A stretch of DNA of 56,840 nucleotides from the NCBI GenBank assembly GCA_900321255.1, contig ONVK01000004.1:1-56840 (forward strand), written 5' to 3'. The stretch is from an uncultured Lentisphaerota bacterium. GTDB lineage: Bacteria > Verrucomicrobiota > Kiritimatiellia > RFP12 > UBA1067. Positions 39,785 to 50,728 of the stretch are shown here, one piece after another (the first letter of the stretch is position 1; every line of letters starts with the position of its first letter). The notes under the pieces are model-generated. The model saw only the letters and a program-made list of their open reading frames with translations. It had not been told where the DNA came from and ran no database searches. The translations under genes and the position numbers were made by a program.

Positions 39785-40138
39785 TCACAACGGGGGTCGG
39801 CTGCCGGAACCGCCGGGATAGCCGCCTCCGATTTCGGCGTCGAGGCCCGCGTTGGCAAGGGCGATCTCCTCGGGGGAGGTTCCGTCAGCTAACGGAAGTC
39901 CGCCGTAGAGAGGCTCGCCGAAGAGGGCCAGCACCTGTTCGATCTCCTCCATCTTGCCGACGGCGCGGTTGACGACGTTCGGGTCGGTGGAGAGAAAAAG
40001 CTGTCTTACCTCCGCATAGCGGCGGAGGAGCGTCCAGCGCACCAGGTCGAAGTCCTGATGCGCGGCGATCTCGGAGAACGCCTTCGCGGCGTTGTCCTCG
40101 TTGAAGCGCGACGCGAGGTATTCCTTCGGCTTCTTCAT
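39785..40138 (-). CDS. Hypothetical head protein
   Basis: A 117-residue mostly helical protein (MKKPKEYLASRFNEDNAAKA) with a disordered Gly/Ser/Pro end. Its ATG overlaps the portal stop by four bases (ATGA), so translation is coupled to the portal. It lies between portal and scaffold. The function is unknown. Confidence 0.55.
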   Translation of the reverse strand: MKKPKEYLASRFNEDNAAKAFSEIAAHQDFDLVRWTLLRRYAEVRQLFLSTDPNVVNRAVGKMEEIEQVLALFGEPLYGGLPLADGTSPEEIALANAGLDAEIGGGYPGGSGSRPPL

Positions 40139-43100
40139 GCCGCGCCCCTCCTTTCGTTCGCGCTGCCGGGATTGGGCTCGATGGGCATGCGGTATTCCAT
40201 GCCGCTGCGTTCATAGGTGGTCCGCGGCGCATCTGCCGCGCCGCCGCCCTGCGACTGCTCGGAGGGGGGCGGGAGCTGCGGGTTGCCGCCTTCCGCGCCG
40301 GGCTGGGGCTGCTGCGCCTGATTGACGGCGGTCTGCGCCCCTGCGGCGGACTTGAGCCTCGCCACGTAGTCCTGTATGTCGAGGTCGGCCTTCGACGGGA
40401 TGATCTTGTCGATGTTCGCGATCTCGTATGTCTCGAGCACCTGGCGGAACAGCTCCATAAGCCCGCGCGCCCCGACGGTCTGGACGAGGAACTGGTTGCT
40501 CGCGACCATCTGCATGAGCTGGAGTACCTTCTGCATCTCCTGCTGCTTGAGGATGAGCCCCATTACGCCGGTCGGTATGACCTCAACGTCGCCCGTGTAG
40601 CCAATGCTGTCATCGTAGAGCATCAGGCGGTATGCGTCCATGCGCACCATCTTGTTGATGCACTTGGAGCTGAGGTTGTCTATGCGCATCTTCGTCGAGC
40701 GGTTGGACGCCTCGGTGAGCATCGCAAGGCCCGAATACGTGTTGTGCGTCGGGATGAAGTTCTCGCAGACGTAAAGATGGTTCGGCGCGTCAACTGAAAT
40801 GCACGTAGCATTTTCGCGCTTCAGGAACTCGATGCCGGTTATGTAAAGACGGCGGCGCGGACGTTGATGAACCCTGTCCAGCTTGCGCTTCAGATGAAAC
40901 ACCGGTTTGTCGAGCGTGAAGTTTATCCTGTAGGCTTCCTTGCCGTTCAGTATCTTGCCGTTGAACTCCGGCTTGTTCTCGTGCGCTAACACAGAGACAG
41001 ACGAAGCACCAAGCGACTTCACAAGAAACACGAAATCGTCGCGCAGCCGTTCAGACGAGGTGTCGAAAAACACGTGGTCGCCGTTTACGGTGGCGCATCC
41101 GTCGGTGTCCATAAGGCCGCGCAGAAGTTCAAGCCGGACTTCCTCGCTGTTGTGCAAATAGATTTCTGGAATGAACTTCTCTATGCTCTTGCACTCAAGA
41201 CCAAGCGCACGATATTTTGGCCTAATGCCAAGAACAGCCCGTGTATAAGCCTTGTCTGCGGCCTTGCGGTCGATTTTGCCGAGTTTGTACGGAATGCGGT
41301 CGAACACCTCGTCGTCCATGCCACAGACGCGACAACGGGCATCGCTGTTCCCGAGGAGCACGCCCATCGTGTAGGGGTCAATGGGCACCTTGCGCGCTGG
41401 ATAGGCAAGCGCATCAACATAGGGCAATGCCCATTTCGGACGCAGACCGCTCGGACAACGCTCGCTTTTCGGCTGCTTGCGCTCGATGCCGCGCACGAGA
41501 AGCTCACGGATGGTGAACACCTTCCATGAATTTTTCCTGTCGGGGTGGTCGCTGACAAGCCAGCGATGTTCAAGGTCGCAGTCGATCTTCTCGCCATTCG
41601 AGAATGTGACGCGGTAGATGTCGCGCTCACCCTGCGGGAAAACGCCGATAACCGTTGACACGCCAGACAGAGTATTGAACACTTCGTCACCGATTTTGAA
41701 GTCGCAGATTCGCTTCGGCCCTGTTGGCGTAAGGACTCGTTCGTAGTCTGCAAGCGCACGACCCGCGCCGCCGGTGACGTTCTGCCCGTATGTGTAGGAC
41801 GGAATCTCGGAAACATCGTCGATGCGCTTGATCGCCATGTTCATCACGGCGAGGATGTCGTTAATGCGGCTGTCGACGCGGAGAATGCCCATCGGCGGTC
41901 CATTAGGCGTCGCGACGCCGGCCGTCGTGGCCTTGAACGCCCACACCTTGCCGCCTATGAGCTTGAAGCGCGTCGGCGTCTTGTCCAGTAGCCGCGACGC
42001 ATCCGAGATCCACGCCTGCGGAGCCGCCGTCATGTTCATGTTGACGATGAGCGACTGAAGACATCCGTTCATCACGCGCTGGTATGCGATGAGCCGTTGC
42101 GCGATGGACGTGCCGAAGAAGCTGTCCGTCGCCTCGTAGAACTGCGCCTTGGAGAGCGGACGCCCCATGCAGGGGTTGATGATGCGGCAGTACACGCAGT
42201 AGTCGTCTATGACGATTGCGTTGACTTCGTAGAAGTCGTCGGGGTTGATGGCCTTGCCCTCGTGCGTCCTGATGACGCCCATGCGGAGGAGAAGATTCCC
42301 GCGGATCTCGCCGTAGTAGGAAATGCCCTCCATCATGCAGGACGAGTCGGCCACCCACGTTGAATGCCCCTTGAGCTCCTTGTTCTCCTCGTCGCCGTCC
42401 TGCCACGACAGGCGCACGCCGCCCTGCGGATACTTCGCGAGGAGATCCGTCACGGTGTCGCGGAACCACACGCCGTTCTCCGCGTCGTCGCCCCCTGCCT
42501 CGGTGGCGTTGAGCCACAGGTCGTTCGGCGAGAAGCGGACCTTGATGCAGATCGGGCCGTCGTCCACCTCGGACTGGTCGGGCGATGGATAGACGTCGAG
42601 CGGACTGATGGCGCGGAACGCCACGCCGGGCTTCGCCTTGCGCGAGAGCTTGCCCTTGGAGCTCCAGTCGTTTTTCCAGCGCATGCAGGGGACAGGCCCC
42701 TCCCACAGCGTCGTGCCGAATACGGTCAGGTACTCGATGCCCTGGTTGAACGCCGACATGAAGTCAGCCTCCTCAAAGTCGTCGCGGACGCGACGCTCGA
42801 GGAGCGCGATTTGGTCGTTGGCGTACTCGCGCTCGGCGTTGCGCATCTCCGCCATACGGTCGCGGGCGAACTGCGCCGCCATCTCTGGCGTCGGGGCCAT
42901 CCCCGCCTCCATAGAGATCTGCGCGAGTTCGTCGAGCATCTTCTGGAGCATCATCTCCGTGATGTAGTCGGGAAGGTCGGGATGCGCCGTGGACGAAAGC
43001 CTCGCGGGGAAGTTCCCGCTCGTCGAGAATATCTCCTTCATCTGTGACTGCGCGATGAACTTGCGCAGCTCGACGACCGGCTCGGACACGTCGTCGGGAA

Positions 43101-43365
43101 TGCCGAGCGCGGCGAGCTTCTGCTTCTCCGCGGCGGTGTACTCCGAGCGGCAGACGCGCCATGATGCGCGCATCTGGTCATGGTATCCCTGGCGGACGGC
43201 ATACTGCTCGTTCACCTGGAAGACACCGTTGACGTAGCGGGCGACCGTCATTTCGCGCGGAGTGGTGCGGACGTCGCGGTCGAGGGTCTCCGACTCCGAT
43301 GACCCCGCGATGTCCTTCACGTCCGGCGCAAGCGCCGCCGCCGACAATGTGTCTAATTCGCTCAT
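40135..43365 (-). CDS. Portal protein interrupted by an intein
   Basis: The 1076-residue precursor would splice to a 737-residue portal, the ring through which DNA enters the head. The N-extein is residues 1-536 and the C-extein 876-1076. Sequences after removal join GGAGR to TYSGLAMLTEASN, restoring a conserved helix of podovirus-like portals. The N-extein contains helical regions with MLQKMLDELAQISMEAG and DEENKELKGHSTW. The start ATG at 43365 (MSELDTLSAAAL) lies 60 bases after the large terminase stop. A longer in-frame extension upstream is ruled out because it overlaps terminase. The C-terminus is Gln/Gly/Pro-rich. Confidence 0.88.
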   Translation of the reverse strand: MSELDTLSAAALAPDVKDIAGSSESETLDRDVRTTPREMTVARYVNGVFQVNEQYAVRQGYHDQMRASWRVCRSEYTAAEKQKLAALGIPDDVSEPVVELRKFIAQSQMKEIFSTSGNFPARLSSTAHPDLPDYITEMMLQKMLDELAQISMEAGMAPTPEMAAQFARDRMAEMRNAEREYANDQIALLERRVRDDFEEADFMSAFNQGIEYLTVFGTTLWEGPVPCMRWKNDWSSKGKLSRKAKPGVAFRAISPLDVYPSPDQSEVDDGPICIKVRFSPNDLWLNATEAGGDDAENGVWFRDTVTDLLAKYPQGGVRLSWQDGDEENKELKGHSTWVADSSCMMEGISYYGEIRGNLLLRMGVIRTHEGKAINPDDFYEVNAIVIDDYCVYCRIINPCMGRPLSKAQFYEATDSFFGTSIAQRLIAYQRVMNGCLQSLIVNMNMTAAPQAWISDASRLLDKTPTRFKLIGGKVWAFKATTAGVATPNGPPMGILRVDSRINDILAVMNMAIKRIDDVSEIPSYTYGQNVTGGAGRALADYERVLTPTGPKRICDFKIGDEVFNTLSGVSTVIGVFPQGERDIYRVTFSNGEKIDCDLEHRWLVSDHPDRKNSWKVFTIRELLVRGIERKQPKSERCPSGLRPKWALPYVDALAYPARKVPIDPYTMGVLLGNSDARCRVCGMDDEVFDRIPYKLGKIDRKAADKAYTRAVLGIRPKYRALGLECKSIEKFIPEIYLHNSEEVRLELLRGLMDTDGCATVNGDHVFFDTSSERLRDDFVFLVKSLGASSVSVLAHENKPEFNGKILNGKEAYRINFTLDKPVFHLKRKLDRVHQRPRRRLYITGIEFLKRENATCISVDAPNHLYVCENFIPTHNTYSGLAMLTEASNRSTKMRIDNLSSKCINKMVRMDAYRLMLYDDSIGYTGDVEVIPTGVMGLILKQQEMQKVLQLMQMVASNQFLVQTVGARGLMELFRQVLETYEIANIDKIIPSKADLDIQDYVARLKSAAGAQTAVNQAQQPQPGAEGGNPQLPPPSEQSQGGGAADAPRTTYERSGMEYRMPIEPNPGSANERRGAA
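40741..41757 (-). other. Intein of 339 residues, class 3-like, with LAGLIDADG domain
   Basis: The intein begins ALADYERVLTPTGPKRICDF with Ala1 instead of Cys or Ser. It ends NFIPTHN, followed by extein Thr+1. Block B shows DLEHRW with H64 and W66. Block F reads TCISVDAPNHLYV with C319. H338 and N339 are the penultimate His and terminal Asn. W66, C319 and Thr+1 form the WCT triplet that defines class 3 inteins. A homing-endonuclease domain carries two LAGLIDADG helices at about 129-138 (YTMGVLLGNS) and 211-220 (LLRGLMDTDG). The first has Asn137 where a catalytic Asp is expected. It sits in portal residues 537-875. Confidence 0.9.
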
Positions 43366-43424
43366 GCCACCCGCAGAATAACAAAGGGGAGTTTTCGATG
43401 AACCCTGCTGAACCTCGGCATCCC

Positions 43425-44993
43425 TCAGAAGCACAGCCCCATGCCGCCGGCCGACGCCAGGGCCTCGTCCATGTCGGGGTCGTTCTCTCCGTCGACCATG
43501 TACGGGTTGGAGAAGTTCATGCCGCTGTTCTTGATGCCGCAGACGAGGTACTGCAACGCGTCGTGGACGTCGGACACGGGGTGTCCCTTGTCCGGCTCGT
43601 CCGTGTACTTCGCGTCCTCCTCGTCGGCGCCGTCGAGCCGCATGCGGCGGTAGTGGTAGTCGCCGTTGAATCCTCCGATCAGCACCTTGCAGGAAGGGTC
43701 GATGATGATCGCCGGCGCCGAGCCGATGCGGCGGTTCAGCACCTCCGACACGTTGTTGATGCGCGTCACGGACGAGTTGTGGTAGCCGCGCTGGCCATAG
43801 GGCGTCACGGGCGCGGGGACCACGTTCAGCCCGAGCCGGTTCATCGTCTCGATGCAGGTGATGTCGTCCACCTGCGTCGGGTCGGCGCCGGCGGGGTCGC
43901 CGAAGCCGAACGCCTTGACGTGGTAGAGGTCGAAGTCGTTGATGAGCGTGGGGCGGAGCTTCTGCGTCACAAAGTCCGCAATCCCCATGTTGTCCGAGGT
44001 TATCTCGCGGAGGATCCGTATCTGTCCGTCGAGCCCCACCTGCGCCACTACGGTGCACGGCGTCCGCCCGAAGTCCTGCCCGTACACCACGGGGAGGTTC
44101 TGCGAGAACTCCAGCGGCCTCTTCGCGACATGGAAGTCCTGCGAGAACTCCGGGTACACGGGCCGCCCAGCCTTCTTCGCGACCCACTTGCACAGTATGA
44201 AGCGGTCGATCTTGTCCTGCGCCATGCCGAGCTGGTTGCGCCAATACTGGAAGCCCTCGTTGTGGTTCCCCACGTTCTCGGCGGCGGGGAAGGCCGGATC
44301 CTGCCCGACGTTGTTCTCGTAGCGCTTCTCGCCCGTCTCGGGGTCGACGACGAGCAGAAGCGCCGGCGGTTGGTTGAAGAACTCCCAGCCCTCGGGAAGC
44401 TCCTGCATCTTGCGGTAGACCCAGTTGTACTGGTCGAGCGGGTTCCCGTCGGCTATGACGCCCAGCGAGGGGAACACCTTGTCGCCGTCCTTCGGCGGGT
44501 AGCGCCCGAGTCGCGACATGGCCGAGTCCACCGCCGCCTGTGGGACCTGCGGCATCTCGTTGACGTAGATGCCGGAGATCTCGAGGCCGAGCAGGTGGTC
44601 TATCGCCTTCGGCGTGTCCATCGCCCGGAACAGGAGGTGGATCTCCATCGGGTGCCCGCTCGGGGACGGGAGCCTGAGCCACCCCTCCAGGGGCGGGGAC
44701 ATGTGCATCTCCAGGGCGTTCAGCCCCTCGCGGTTGAAGATGTTCTGCGCCGTCGCCACGGTCGTGGACTTCAGCTCGTCGTAGGTGTTTCGTATCACGA
44801 CCCACCTCGCGCGGATCACGCCGTCCGCCATCGGCGGCATGCACTCCGCCGTCTTGCGGTAGATCTCCATCCAGTTCATCCATGTCTTGCCGGAGCCGAC
44901 GGGGCCGATCACGACCCTGACCCTCGCGGTCGAGGCGTGGAACCTCACCCCGGTCGGCGTAGGCCAGTAGTCGAACGACGACTTACCGGACAT
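43425..44993 (-). CDS. terL: Terminase large subunit
   Basis: This 522-residue enzyme is the ATP-driven DNA packaging motor and nuclease. The ATPase domain has Walker A GPVGSGKT at residues 30-37 and a Walker B-like GIYVNEMPQ. The nuclease region carries VVYGQDFGRTPCTVVAQVG and FGFGDPAGADPTQVDDITC with acidic metal ligands. The gene overlaps the small subunit by 11 bases and precedes the portal. Length is normal. Confidence 0.9.
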   Translation of the reverse strand: MSGKSSFDYWPTPTGVRFHASTARVRVVIGPVGSGKTWMNWMEIYRKTAECMPPMADGVIRARWVVIRNTYDELKSTTVATAQNIFNREGLNALEMHMSPPLEGWLRLPSPSGHPMEIHLLFRAMDTPKAIDHLLGLEISGIYVNEMPQVPQAAVDSAMSRLGRYPPKDGDKVFPSLGVIADGNPLDQYNWVYRKMQELPEGWEFFNQPPALLLVVDPETGEKRYENNVGQDPAFPAAENVGNHNEGFQYWRNQLGMAQDKIDRFILCKWVAKKAGRPVYPEFSQDFHVAKRPLEFSQNLPVVYGQDFGRTPCTVVAQVGLDGQIRILREITSDNMGIADFVTQKLRPTLINDFDLYHVKAFGFGDPAGADPTQVDDITCIETMNRLGLNVVPAPVTPYGQRGYHNSSVTRINNVSEVLNRRIGSAPAIIIDPSCKVLIGGFNGDYHYRRMRLDGADEEDAKYTDEPDKGHPVSDVHDALQYLVCGIKNSGMNFSNPYMVDGENDPDMDEALASAGGMGLCF

Positions 44994-47030: not shown

Positions 47031-47151
47031 CGCAACGGCTTTCGTTGCGTGAATGATTGCGCGGCTTTTCGCGCAATCGCCAAAATGCGGCAATGTCCCG
47101 AAAACTTCCTAAACACTTGTCTGCGGCTTGCGGGCGAAAGTCTGCAAGCCG
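47031..47151 (+). other. Three consecutive hairpins before the first plus-strand gene
   Basis: Hairpin 1 is CGCAACG/CGTTGCG (47031-47049) with loop GCTTT. Hairpin 2 is GATTGCGCG/CGCGCAATC (47055-47078) with loop GCTTTT. Hairpin 3 is CGGCTTGC/GCAAGCCG (47124-47151) with a 12-base loop. All perfect stems. They lie 107 bases or more before the first gene and could be a small RNA or part of a leader. Confidence 0.6.
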
Positions 47152-47257
47152 TCTAAATGCGCGGCGGCGGCGCGTGCCGTCCGTCACGGTGGCAAGCCCG
47201 AGAAAAGCATGAGCCGACAAAACAGACAAAAGCGCGAAAGCGCGGAAGGGAGACACC

Positions 47258-47671
47258 ATGAACGAGGAAAACACAAAGGTCGAGGTCGCGTCCGCATTTG
47301 CCACGATTGCGGCGAAGCAGAAGAAGGACGCGCACAAGCTCCCGCGGATTGAGTATTTCCGCGTGGACATCGACAAGGGGACGGGGAGCGCGGCGAACTG
47401 GCACGCGACGGGCTACGTCCTCCACGTGAAGGTGCAGGGGGTTGAAGGGGAGTATCTGGCCGGCTCGGTGGGCGCGTTCTACGGCATGAACGTGAAGTCG
47501 CGCTTCAAGACGGCGGACGAGGCGAGGGCCGAGGGCTTCAAGATGAAGAAGTCCTGGGGCCGCGAGAAGGCGGCGAAGGCGGCGGGCTCGAAGGGGCCGA
47601 CGAAGGCGGACCTGATTGCGCAGGTCGAGGAGCTCACGAAGCAGCTCGCGCTTGCGAAGCTCGCGGCGTAA
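47258..47671 (+). CDS. Hypothetical phage protein, first gene of the plus-strand block
   Basis: This 137-residue protein has a compact middle (TGYVLHVKVQGVEGEYLAGS) and a Lys/Ala-rich C-terminus with a possible short coiled-coil (ADLIAQVEELTKQLALAKLA). GGAAGGGAG precedes the ATG. It is the first gene beyond the control region, so it may be expressed early. The function is unknown. Confidence 0.65.
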   Translation: MNEENTKVEVASAFATIAAKQKKDAHKLPRIEYFRVDIDKGTGSAANWHATGYVLHVKVQGVEGEYLAGSVGAFYGMNVKSRFKTADEARAEGFKMKKSWGREKAAKAAGSKGPTKADLIAQVEELTKQLALAKLAA

Positions 47672-47830
47672 GGCGATAGACGGGGACAAGTCACGGGGGG
47701 CGCGGTCGGACGGAATGGCCGCGCCCCTTCGCTAATCATGCCGCGGCGTATGGTGCGCCGCGCCGGTCCCAAGCCCGGAAAATGAGAGGGGCGAAAACGC
47801 AATGGCCGCAAGGCCGGAAGGGAGATGCAC

Positions 47831-48582: not shown

Positions 48583-48601
48583 GCGGGTGCAGAAGCGTCG
48601 A

Positions 48602-48667
48602 GACGTGACGCCGGCGGGCAGGGCTTCGGCTCTACCCGCCGTTTCACGTCCCAACGGTTGGGCCGTG
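48602..48667 (+). promoter_or_regulatory. Structured element A with alternative pairing
   Basis: Strand 1 GACGTGA (48602-48608) pairs with strand 2 TCACGTC (48644-48650) and encloses a GGCGGG/CCCGCC stem with a TTCG loop (48613-48640). Strand 2 can instead join a downstream hairpin: CACG (48645-48648) with CGTG (48664-48667), extended by CCCAA/TTGGG. It lies between the genes ending at 48582 and starting at 48703. It is homologous to element B. Confidence 0.6.
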
Positions 48668-48702
48668 GCAGAACAACAACAAAGACAACAGGAGGAAAAG
48701 AC

Positions 48703-49173
48703 ATGGCAAGGATGACAGCAACGACACAGCGTGCGCTCGAGAGCATAATCGACGAGCGCGCCGCGAGCAAGAGGGCGGAGCTCGAGAAGCGCGTCGAGGA
48801 TGCGCGGGGCAAGCAGTCCGGTGCGGTCGACGCGAAGTTCGACAGCTTCAAGAAGGAGCTCAATGCGTTGATTGCAGAGGCGGCTCGCAAGTTCGACGCG
48901 CTCAAGGGCAAGTACAAGGTCGACGTAACCAGCAGGTACTATGACGGTTCCATGACCTTTGAACAAGCGGCGGAATACTTCCGCCGTTCGGACTTCCGCG
49001 ACTACGTCAGCCCCTTGGACAAGAAGCTGTCCGACGAGCTGGGCAAGGCGAAGGACGAGCTCAAGGCGTTTGAGACGAAGGTCGCGAACGCCAAGCGCGA
49101 GCTGATTCTGCGCTCGACGCTCAACGCTTCCTACAAGTCCGTGATGGACTTCATCAACGGGCTCAGCTTCTAA
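48703..49173 (+). CDS. Coiled-coil hypothetical phage protein
   Basis: This 156-residue protein is largely helical with coiled-coil stretches (DERAASKRAELEKRVEDARG, KLSDELGKAKDELKAFETKV). The ATG at 48703 follows the AAAGACAACAGGAGG-type leader. The function is unknown; a structural or nucleoid-type role is possible. Structured element A lies just upstream. Confidence 0.6.
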   Translation: MARMTATTQRALESIIDERAASKRAELEKRVEDARGKQSGAVDAKFDSFKKELNALIAEAARKFDALKGKYKVDVTSRYYDGSMTFEQAAEYFRRSDFRDYVSPLDKKLSDELGKAKDELKAFETKVANAKRELILRSTLNASYKSVMDFINGLSF

Positions 49174-49208
49174 TCGCGCAACAACGCAAAAGACAAGGAG
49201 TAAGCAAC

Positions 49209-49577
49209 ATGGCAGACATCAAGAAGGTTCGCTTCCCCGTTCCGGGCGGCATCGTCCGCGGCATGGACGGCAAGGAGTACAAGTGCACGCACATCGAGTG
49301 CTCTGTCGGCTACGAGCTGGGCGGCCGCAGCTGTTGGACGGGGCAGAACAACGCACGCGGCTACTACGCCTATGTGAAGCCCGTTTCGGTCAGCAGCCGA
49401 GACGGATACACGAGCGTGAGTTTTGAACTGTTCGCAGGCGGCAAGTGGCTTCTCGTTCCCTGCGCAAGGCGGTCGTCGAAGCGCGAGGCGGAGGCGGTCG
49501 CGAAGTTCGACGCGGAGGTCCGCGACTACGTTGCGCACCTCTACGACGTTGCAGGCATCGAGCTTGCGGCGGCGTGA
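49209..49577 (+). CDS. Hypothetical phage protein
   Basis: This 122-residue protein (MADIKKVRFPVPGGIVRGMD onward) is beta-rich in the first half with helical ends. The leader AAAGACAAGGAGTAA precedes the ATG. Several cysteines occur. The function is unknown. Confidence 0.6.
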   Translation: MADIKKVRFPVPGGIVRGMDGKEYKCTHIECSVGYELGGRSCWTGQNNARGYYAYVKPVSVSSRDGYTSVSFELFAGGKWLLVPCARRSSKREAEAVAKFDAEVRDYVAHLYDVAGIELAAA

Positions 49578-49622
49578 CGCAATGTAACGCAACACAACAC
49601 AAGACAACAAGGAGAAACACAC

Positions 49623-50189
49623 ATGGGTCAGTATTATCGCATCGCCTTCAAGCACGAGGGCAAGCGCGTCGTCGTCAACGACCGCCAGATCAAGGGCGAG
49701 GGCTACATCATGGCGAAGCTGCTCGAGCATTCGTGGCTCGGCTGCGACATTGCCGACGCGGTGGCTCGCGAAATGTACGGCAATCCGCTGCGGCTCGCAT
49801 GGGTCGGCGACTATGCCGACGACGGCGACGAGGTGAAGGCCGCGACGCGCGGGGACGTCAGCTACAAGCGCGTGTGGAAGCGCGACCACAAGCACGAGTT
49901 CCCTGCCGACGACAACGGCTTCGACTACTCGCACAAGTGGCTCGTCAACCACGACAAGAAGCTCGCCGTGTCGTTTGACGAATACATCGCCGCGTCGAAG
50001 ACGAAGTATGGCGTCATCGCGCCCTTCCCGCTTCTCACGGCGATTGGAAACAACCGCGGCGGCGGCGACTACTACGAGAGCCATTCGGACTTCGACAAGG
50101 TTGGGACTTGGGTGTGGGACCTCATCTCCATCGAGGACGCGAAGCCCGAGGGCTACGAGGACTTCCGCGTGGTCTTCAAGGAGGGGTGA
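49623..50189 (+). CDS. MGQYY-type phage protein of unknown function
   Basis: The 188-residue protein begins MGQYYRIAFKHEGKRVVVND and contains GNPLRLAWVGDYADDGDEVK. Proteins with this MGQYY start and AWVGDYA segment recur in gut phages, function unknown. ACAAGGAG precedes the ATG. A shorter protein with a similar start lies at 54762-55163. Confidence 0.65.
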   Translation: MGQYYRIAFKHEGKRVVVNDRQIKGEGYIMAKLLEHSWLGCDIADAVAREMYGNPLRLAWVGDYADDGDEVKAATRGDVSYKRVWKRDHKHEFPADDNGFDYSHKWLVNHDKKLAVSFDEYIAASKTKYGVIAPFPLLTAIGNNRGGGDYYESHSDFDKVGTWVWDLISIEDAKPEGYEDFRVVFKEG

Positions 50190-50192
50190 CAA

Positions 50193-50342
50193 ATGAGGAA
50201 GGCGACATGCAGGCTGATTGAAGCCGCCGAGGGCGGAATGCTCTCGTGGGAGGCGATAGCGAGGGAGTGCCTTGCGCAGATGTCCGAGGACGACGTTGCG
50301 GACGTTGCGACGGCGCTCGGGTGCGACGACGAGGACGAGTAG
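50193..50342 (+). CDS. Small acidic phage protein
   Basis: The 49-residue product (MRKATCRLIEAAEGGMLSWE onward) ends in an acidic tail (CDDEDE). It starts three bases after the preceding stop, with GGAGGGG upstream. The helical ECLAQMSEDDVADVATALG segment is typical of small phage proteins. The function is unknown. Confidence 0.6.
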   Translation: MRKATCRLIEAAEGGMLSWEAIARECLAQMSEDDVADVATALGCDDEDE

Positions 50343-50353
50343 AAGCGCCATGA

Positions 50354-50415
50354 GACATGACGCCAGGGGGAACGGTTCGCCGCTCCCTCTGTTTCATGTC
50401 CCACGGTGGGGCATG
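50354..50415 (+). promoter_or_regulatory. Structured element B with alternative pairing
   Basis: Strand 1 GACATGA (50354-50360) pairs with strand 2 TCATGTC (50394-50400) around AGGGGGA...CGG-TTCG-CCG...TCCCTCT (50365-50390). Alternatively CATG (50395-50398) pairs with CATG (50412-50415) as the base of a hairpin containing CCCA/TGGG. Compared with element A, one base pair changes from G-C to A-T and the third strand changes with it. It lies between genes ending at 50342 and starting at 50453. Confidence 0.6.
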
Positions 50416-50452
50416 GCTAAAATGAACACCAAGACAATAGGAGGAAACAACC

Positions 50453-50728
50453 ATGAAGATGACCAAGAACACCACCCACAATTCCATCGAGATCGACTTC
50501 GAGGGCGCCAAGCCGTCCGAGCAGGTCCGCGAGCTGATGAAGGCCTACGGCTTCTGGTGGTTCGGCAAGGGCAAGGTGTGGTGCCATACGCTCACTGTCG
50601 ACGGCGAGTTCTTCGAGAAGTTTGTCGAGGAGCGCATCAAGCCCCTCGTGGCGGCCCCGAAGATCGACGTGTCGGCGATGAGCGACGCGGAGAAGCAGGC
50701 CCTTCTCGCCCAGCTGATGGGCAAGTAA
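50453..50728 (+). CDS. Hypothetical phage protein with GFxWxxxGKVW motif
   Basis: The 91-residue product contains ELMKAYGFWWFGKGKVWCHT, resembling a small domain found in phage and mobile-element proteins. The ATG at 50453 follows an AAGACAATAGGAGG leader. A C-terminal helix (DAEKQALLAQLMG) completes it. The function is unknown. Element B lies upstream and a terminator lies downstream. Confidence 0.6.
   Translation: MKMTKNTTHNSIEIDFEGAKPSEQVRELMKAYGFWWFGKGKVWCHTLTVDGEFFEKFVEERIKPLVAAPKIDVSAMSDAEKQALLAQLMGK

What the first reader, a model, noticed from the sequence alone, without database searches (positions are those of the whole stretch)
48591..48668. Structured element A: strand 2 can pair with either flank
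This gap contains a long stem with a TTCG-capped arm and a second hairpin that competes for the same strand (48644-48650). Comparison with element B shows a three-way change: g48605/c48647/g48665 becomes a50357/t50397/a50413. The stem sequence of the inner arm differs almost completely while pairing is kept. That pattern suggests selection on two mutually exclusive folds, as in riboswitches or attenuators, and nothing in known families that I recognise matches it.
Basis: partly seen in the sequence, partly recalled or inferred. Interest (0 to 1): 0.85.

Follow-up and report, generated by a model that had tools for sequence, protein, structure and literature searches.

The report
Two-fold switching RNA between phage genes
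Between early genes of a small group of little-known phages sits an RNA stretch that can fold in two mutually exclusive ways, and both folds have been preserved by matching mutations in six copies from four phages; it matches no catalogued RNA family and shares its operons with known self-cutting RNAs, so it is probably a new kind of phage mRNA processing or control site.

Summary
Element A (48591-48672, +) has a paralogue B (50341-50420). I found four homologues in three related phages: C in L137, D in L141, E and F in L147. In all six, strand 2 can pair with strand 1 (long stem) or with strand 3 (3' hairpin). Alignments fitted to one fold support the other: about 94-95% of cells paired, 10 pairs changed on both sides, 0 of 500 shuffles as good. 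Three column triplets covary across all three strands. G-U pairs in hairpin 2-3 (14 versus 3 cells) and stable-tetraloop swaps point to the + strand mRNA.

No Rfam family matches. Terminal and internal loops are not conserved, no U-run follows, and the Shine-Dalgarno region is free in both folds. So neither an aptamer riboswitch nor a terminator attenuator is supported. The elements lie between a stop codon and the next gene's leader in early operons; three of the four operons also carry twister-like or hammerhead ribozymes. In the gap where the window has B, one relative has a hammerhead.

Best guess: an RNase III-type mRNA processing site (long fold) whose 3' hairpin caps the downstream message. 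Structure is well supported; mechanism is inferred (about 0.4).

The parts
48591..48672 (+). Element A, whole unit
   Evidence: R1 model 101.7 bits; homologues C-F
48602..48608 (+). A strand 1 (GACGTGA); pairs with strand 2 in the long fold
   Evidence: covaries with strand 2 at three columns
48601..48601 (+). A: constant A of the A.C mismatch (opposite C48651), present in all six elements
   Evidence: alignments A8/A9
48612..48641 (+). A inner arm with UUCG loop (48625-48628)
   Evidence: 7 of 12 pairs have a change on both sides across six sequences
48644..48650 (+). A strand 2 (TCACGTC); shared partner of strands 1 and 3; pairing with strand 3 continues into the following CCAA
48658..48669 (+). 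A strand 3 (TTGGGCCGTGGC); pairs with strand 2 in the 3' hairpin
   Evidence: hairpin 2-3: 92.6% of cells paired, 3 pairs with a change on both sides
48703..49173 (+). Gene downstream of A (156 aa); its homologue lies downstream of C in L137
   Evidence: 29% identity; synteny
50341..50420 (+). Element B, whole unit (paralogue of A)
   Evidence: R1 92.1 bits
50354..50360 (+). B strand 1 (GACATGA)
50364..50391 (+). B inner arm with UUCG loop
50394..50400 (+). B strand 2 (TCATGTC)
50407..50417 (+). B strand 3 (TGGGGCATGGC)
50453..50728 (+). Gene downstream of B (91 aa); its orthologue in L141 has a type II hammerhead in the same gap
47150..47219 (+). Context: twister-P1-like RNA in the leader of the first early gene
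   Evidence: 34.4 bits, E 1.9e-4, below Rfam's gathering score of 67.2
47729..47794 (+). Context: twister-P1-like RNA in the gap after the first early gene
   Evidence: 55.1 bits, E 2.3e-10, below Rfam's gathering score of 67.2

Best explanation
The element is a cis-acting, two-state RNA in the sense strand of the phage early-operon mRNA, placed between the stop codon of one gene and the Shine-Dalgarno leader of the next. As it is transcribed, strand 1, arm and strand 2 fold first into a long imperfect hairpin (24-29 predicted pairs). I propose that this long fold is an mRNA processing site, cut by host RNase III or a similar double-strand endonuclease in the manner of the phage T7 early-mRNA sites. 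Cutting would separate the neighbouring messages, after which strand 2 pairs with strand 3 and forms a hairpin at the new 5' end of the downstream message, leaving its Shine-Dalgarno sequence open. Before cutting, the two folds compete, which would set how much is processed. Shown: pairing, covariation of both folds, + strand bias, placement, absence from Rfam, and shared operons with self-cleaving ribozyme motifs. Inferred: folding order, cleavage, the nuclease, 5' capping and the effect on expression.
For: Both folds are conserved in six copies from four phages: alignments fitted to the other fold give 93.7% and 95.4% of cells paired, 10 pairs with changes on both sides each, 0 of 500 shuffles, and collapse to 40-54% when slid. 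The long fold has 24-29 predicted pairs in every copy, enough for an RNase III substrate (established knowledge). T7 sequence around seven of nine RNase III sites (positions recalled from memory) folds as a stable arm, with an outer stem and internal loop in most. The two folds lie within about 6 kcal/mol in each copy. The 2-3 hairpin ends 24-36 nt before the next ATG in A, B, D, E and F. Elements precede unrelated genes and occur twice per operon in two phages, which suits a general processing site. Other gaps of these operons carry self-cleaving ribozyme motifs: twister-like at 47150 and 47729 and in L137, type II hammerhead in L141. The gap before the 50453 gene holds element B here and a hammerhead in L141.
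Against: No transcript or cleavage data. RNase III processing alone does not require the strand 2-3 alternative, so capping is an added assumption. The A.C mismatch in stem 1-2 is constant in all six and unexplained. Stem 1-2 is weaker in E and F, and against shuffled strand 1 it is not significant there. Computed stability favours the hairpin fold in A, B, C and E. The twister-type matches are below Rfam's gathering score, and L147 has no detected ribozyme.
Confidence: 0.4

Rival explanations
1. A translation- or transcription-coupled switch: a ribosome ending at the upstream stop codon, or a paused polymerase, disturbs strand 1 so that strand 2 pairs with strand 3, changing expression of the next gene.
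For: Strand 1 begins 9-18 nt after the upstream stop in A, B, D, E and F. The folds are mutually exclusive and covary.
Against: In C the distance is about 45 nt. The Shine-Dalgarno region is free in both folds and no U-run follows hairpin 2-3, so no output is visible. Downstream genes are unrelated.
Confidence: 0.25
2. A binding site for a phage or host protein or for RNA polymerase: a put- or nut-like antitermination signal or a shared operator.
For: The hairpin fold is two adjacent stem-loops within about 75 nt, like HK022 put RNA (PMC9378689). Two copies per genome in two phages. Conserved core UGAGAC / GUCCCA / GGG.
Against: The two copies lie in the same operon, 1.75 and 4.8 kb apart, whereas put has one per operon. 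The terminator scan shows no excess of terminators in the operon. Selection on stem 1-2 is not explained.
Confidence: 0.15
3. A new class of self-cleaving ribozyme, as suggested by its company of twister and hammerhead motifs.
For: Interspersed with twister-like and hammerhead motifs in orthologous operons, once in the same gap. Earlier ribozyme classes were found by such association (my own knowledge).
Against: Known small ribozymes have a set of invariant unpaired core nucleotides; here the loops and the internal loop vary freely and most conserved positions are paired in one of the folds.
Confidence: 0.07
4. A DNA-level element, such as a three-half-site operator or recombination site; the RNA folds are incidental.
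For: Strands 1 and 3 and the complement of 2 are related repeats. Gene order around A, B and C differs between phages.
Against: Hairpin 2-3 has 14 G-U cells on the + strand against 3 that would be G-U on the other strand; the arm has 7 against 3. Tetraloops swap between UUCG and GCGA. All copies are sense-oriented in intergenic gaps.
Confidence: 0.06
5. A ligand-binding riboswitch.
For: Two mutually exclusive folds upstream of genes.
Against: No conserved unpaired pocket; internal loops are CGC/UU, CCU/CA, a single U bulge, and CA/CA; no expression platform seen; no Rfam match.
Confidence: 0.03

Closest known systems
RNase III processing sites of phage T7 early mRNA
   Same: Intergenic, sense strand, early operon; stable inner arm on an outer stem with an internal loop, just upstream of the next gene's leader (site positions recalled from memory).
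   Different: No sequence relation shown; here strand 2 has a conserved alternative partner (strand 3); cleavage is not shown.
Phage lambda cIII mRNA (two alternative structures, RNase III-linked)
   Same: A phage mRNA leader said to exist in two competing folds, with RNase III involved (my own knowledge; no paper read).
   Different: There the folds gate the start of translation; here the Shine-Dalgarno region is free in both.
HK022 put RNA
   Same: About 70-nt phage RNA with two adjacent stem-loops; two copies per genome (PMC9378689).
   Different: put has one copy per early operon; I saw no conserved alternative pairing described in the passages read; a membership test by sequence was not done.
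Intergenic hammerhead and twister ribozymes of phages and prophages
   Same: Occupy the same kind of gaps, and once the orthologous gap, in these operons; multiple hammerheads in polycistronic RNA next to phage genes are known (PMC3088659).
   Different: A-F match no ribozyme model and lack an invariant unpaired core.

Membership tests
T7-type RNase III site | Double-stranded hairpin of about two helical turns | tested here: met
   24-29 predicted pairs in the long fold of all six
T7-type RNase III site | Intergenic, sense strand of an early polycistronic operon | tested here: met
   operon inferred from gene order and direction
T7-type RNase III site | Cut by RNase III | not testable with these tools
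   needs RNA ends or an in vitro assay
Attenuator with intrinsic terminator | G+C-rich hairpin followed by a U-run | tested here: not met
   A-rich sequence follows strand 3 in all six; the scan lists no terminator at A, B, E or F
Attenuator by Shine-Dalgarno sequestration | Ribosome-binding site paired in one fold | tested here: not met
   SD lies 3' of strand 3 and outside both folds
Riboswitch | Conserved unpaired aptamer core or match to a known class | tested here: not met
   loops vary; no Rfam hit
Known self-cleaving ribozymes | Match to a ribozyme covariance model | tested here: not met
   elements score with none, while neighbouring twister-like and hammerhead motifs are detected
HK022-type put RNA | Two adjacent stem-loops, about 70 nt | tested here: met
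   hairpin fold
HK022-type put RNA | One site per early operon, near the promoter | tested here: not met
   two copies in the same operon in the window and L147
HK022-type put RNA | Contact with the beta' zinc-binding domain of RNA polymerase | not testable with these tools
   needs biochemistry

The most novel reading that the evidence does not exclude
The element is a new class of self-cleaving ribozyme, or a ribozyme-like processing RNA, whose activity is gated by exchange of strand 2 between strands 1 and 3; it would be a further class found in the company of twister and hammerhead ribozymes in phage operons.
Probability: 0.07. Interest if true: 0.9.

Novelty: new variant of a known kind. 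Interest (0 to 1): 0.58.

Why it matters
It adds a phage RNA family absent from Rfam, with covariation for two competing folds, which is rarely seen directly in sequence data. Sharing gaps with twister-like and hammerhead ribozymes suggests that these phages cut or partition their early messages by several interchangeable RNA devices, which can be tested in a standard reporter. If a switch, its trigger is unknown; if a processing site, it is a natural two-state insulator between genes.

Tried and rejected
Scans of IMG/VR by DNA pattern gave only the window phage itself, relatives found otherwise, and chance matches. Weak genome hits with models R1 and R3 (G005, G098, G460, G059, G002 and others) keep only a G+C-rich arm or lack the core, and look like ordinary hairpins. 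L140, a relative by terminase, has a different early region and no element (one 16.8-bit R2 match was not kept by R3). A human gut phage, MT835477, with a distant homologue of the 50453 protein has no element in the 39.5 kb read. The opposite strand as the active one was considered: it folds as a single hairpin, more stably than the + strand in A, B and F and less stably in C, D and E, but G-U usage in hairpin 2-3 and the arm favours the + strand. Only six sequences were available, from related phages, so covariation rests on few independent events; the shuffles do not correct for relatedness. The per-copy test of hairpin 2-3 against shuffled 3' sequence gives p from 0.004 to 0.10, and stem 1-2 gives 0.013 to 0.38; the copies are related, so combined values are only indicative.

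Full report
What was checked. The window is a 56.8 kb phage contig of a metagenome-assembled genome (G000:C87). The IMG/VR contig IMGVR_UViG_2799112319_000001 is identical over the 13.9 kb compared. Its terminase resembles those of tailed phages. A + strand operon of small genes starts near 47258. Element A lies in the gap 48583-48702 and element B in the gap 50343-50452, its first two letters overlapping the upstream stop codon. The repeat between A and B runs on into the A-rich leader and Shine-Dalgarno sequence of the next gene.

Homologues. A covariance model of A and B with stem 1-2 and the arm (R1) found C in L137 (CACWIW010000017.1, RUG10619; 68.2 bits), D in L141 (39.6 bits), and E and F in L147 (40.6 and 30.7 bits). 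The loci came from phage proteins: terminase for L137 and L141, and the AAA and 50453 proteins for L147. No further member was found among 388 genomes sampled across the phylum, 346 of the class and 162 of the order; the only convincing hits were the window and RUG10619.

Two folds, both selected. R1 does not model hairpin 2-3, yet C-F keep it. On the alignment fitted to 1-2, the arm plus hairpin 2-3 is 93.7% paired, with 10 pairs changed on both sides and 0 of 500 shuffles reaching the covariation score. On the alignment fitted to 2-3, the arm plus stem 1-2 is 95.4% paired, with 10 such pairs and 0 of 500. Sliding the partners drops pairing to 40-54%. The arm is common to both counts and supplies 7 of the 10 pairs. 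The decisive columns are 18, 19 and 20 (strand 1), 74, 73 and 72 (strand 2) and 92, 93 and 94 (strand 3): each triplet changes together between copies, with U.G intermediates. A constant A.C mismatch interrupts stem 1-2 in all six. Folding energies of the two states lie within about 6 kcal/mol; the long fold is favoured in D, the hairpin fold in A, B, C and E, and F is balanced.

Which strand. Hairpin 2-3 contains 14 G-U cells on the + strand and 3 that would be G-U only on the - strand; the arm 7 and 3. The outer extension of stem 1-2 goes the other way (0 and 7), six of these being the constant A.C. Loops of the arm are UUCG in A and B and GCGA in C, stable tetraloops on the + strand.

Placement. 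Elements follow the upstream stop codon closely and end 24-36 nt before the next ATG in A, B, D, E and F. Downstream genes differ; A and C share one (29% identity). No terminator-like site falls on the elements.

Company. Permissive Rfam scans found twister-P1-like RNAs at 47150-47219 (34.4 bits) and 47729-47794 (55.1 bits) in the window and one in L137 (33.5 bits); all are below the gathering score of 67.2, but the 55.1-bit match has E 2.3e-10. L141 has a type II hammerhead of 51.1 bits, above the gathering score of 37, in the gap before the orthologue of the 50453 gene, where the window has element B. No ribozyme was detected in L147. None of the six elements matches any Rfam family.

Mechanism. 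A long hairpin of about two helical turns between early genes recalls the RNase III sites of T7; sequence around seven of nine remembered T7 positions folds into a stable arm. RNase III cleavage can stabilise or destabilise messages depending on the mode of cut (PMC6993053). I therefore propose processing in the long fold followed by capping of the downstream message by hairpin 2-3. This fits several copies per operon, unrelated downstream genes, and exchange with self-cleaving ribozymes. Cleavage itself is inference. Coupling to the ribosome at the upstream stop, a put-like polymerase contact (PMC9378689), and a new ribozyme remain open.

Limits. Six sequences, four related phages, no expression data, E-values from a shortened calibration, and shuffles that ignore relatedness.

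Noticed in passing
window 47729-47794 (+) and 47150-47219 (+): Twister-P1-like ribozymes in the early operon (55.1 and 34.4 bits, below the gathering score). In the second, the pseudoknot strands read GUGGC/GAGCC instead of GUCCC/GAGGG, a compensatory swap.
   Followed up: partly
L141:5642-5708 (-): Type II hammerhead ribozyme (51.1 bits, above gathering) in the leader of the orthologue of the window's 50453 gene.
   Followed up: partly
L137:7774-7842 (-): Twister-P1-like RNA (33.5 bits) in the leader of the first early gene, orthologous in place to window 47150-47219, with the same changed pseudoknot.
   Followed up: partly
window 40138-44883 (-), about residues 1248-1296 of the open frame: A LAGLIDADG domain inside what looks like a portal gene (weak SU10 portal match): a probable intein in the portal protein.
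   Followed up: partly
L147:2154-2296 (+): G+C-rich, self-complementary-looking gap before the 50453-gene orthologue, the gap that holds element B in the window and a hammerhead in L141; no Rfam match.
   Followed up: no
L174:7990-8062 (-) (MT835477.1): RAGATH-18 RNA (72.7 bits) in a human gut phage that has a distant homologue of the window's 50453 protein; RAGATH-18-derived RNAs have been reported as guides of IS607 TnpB (PMC11061315).
   Followed up: no
window 48703-50728 and L137 4255-6231: Gene order differs: the gene after A and C lies before the 49623 gene in the window and after it in L137, so the element plus gene may move as a block.
   Followed up: partly
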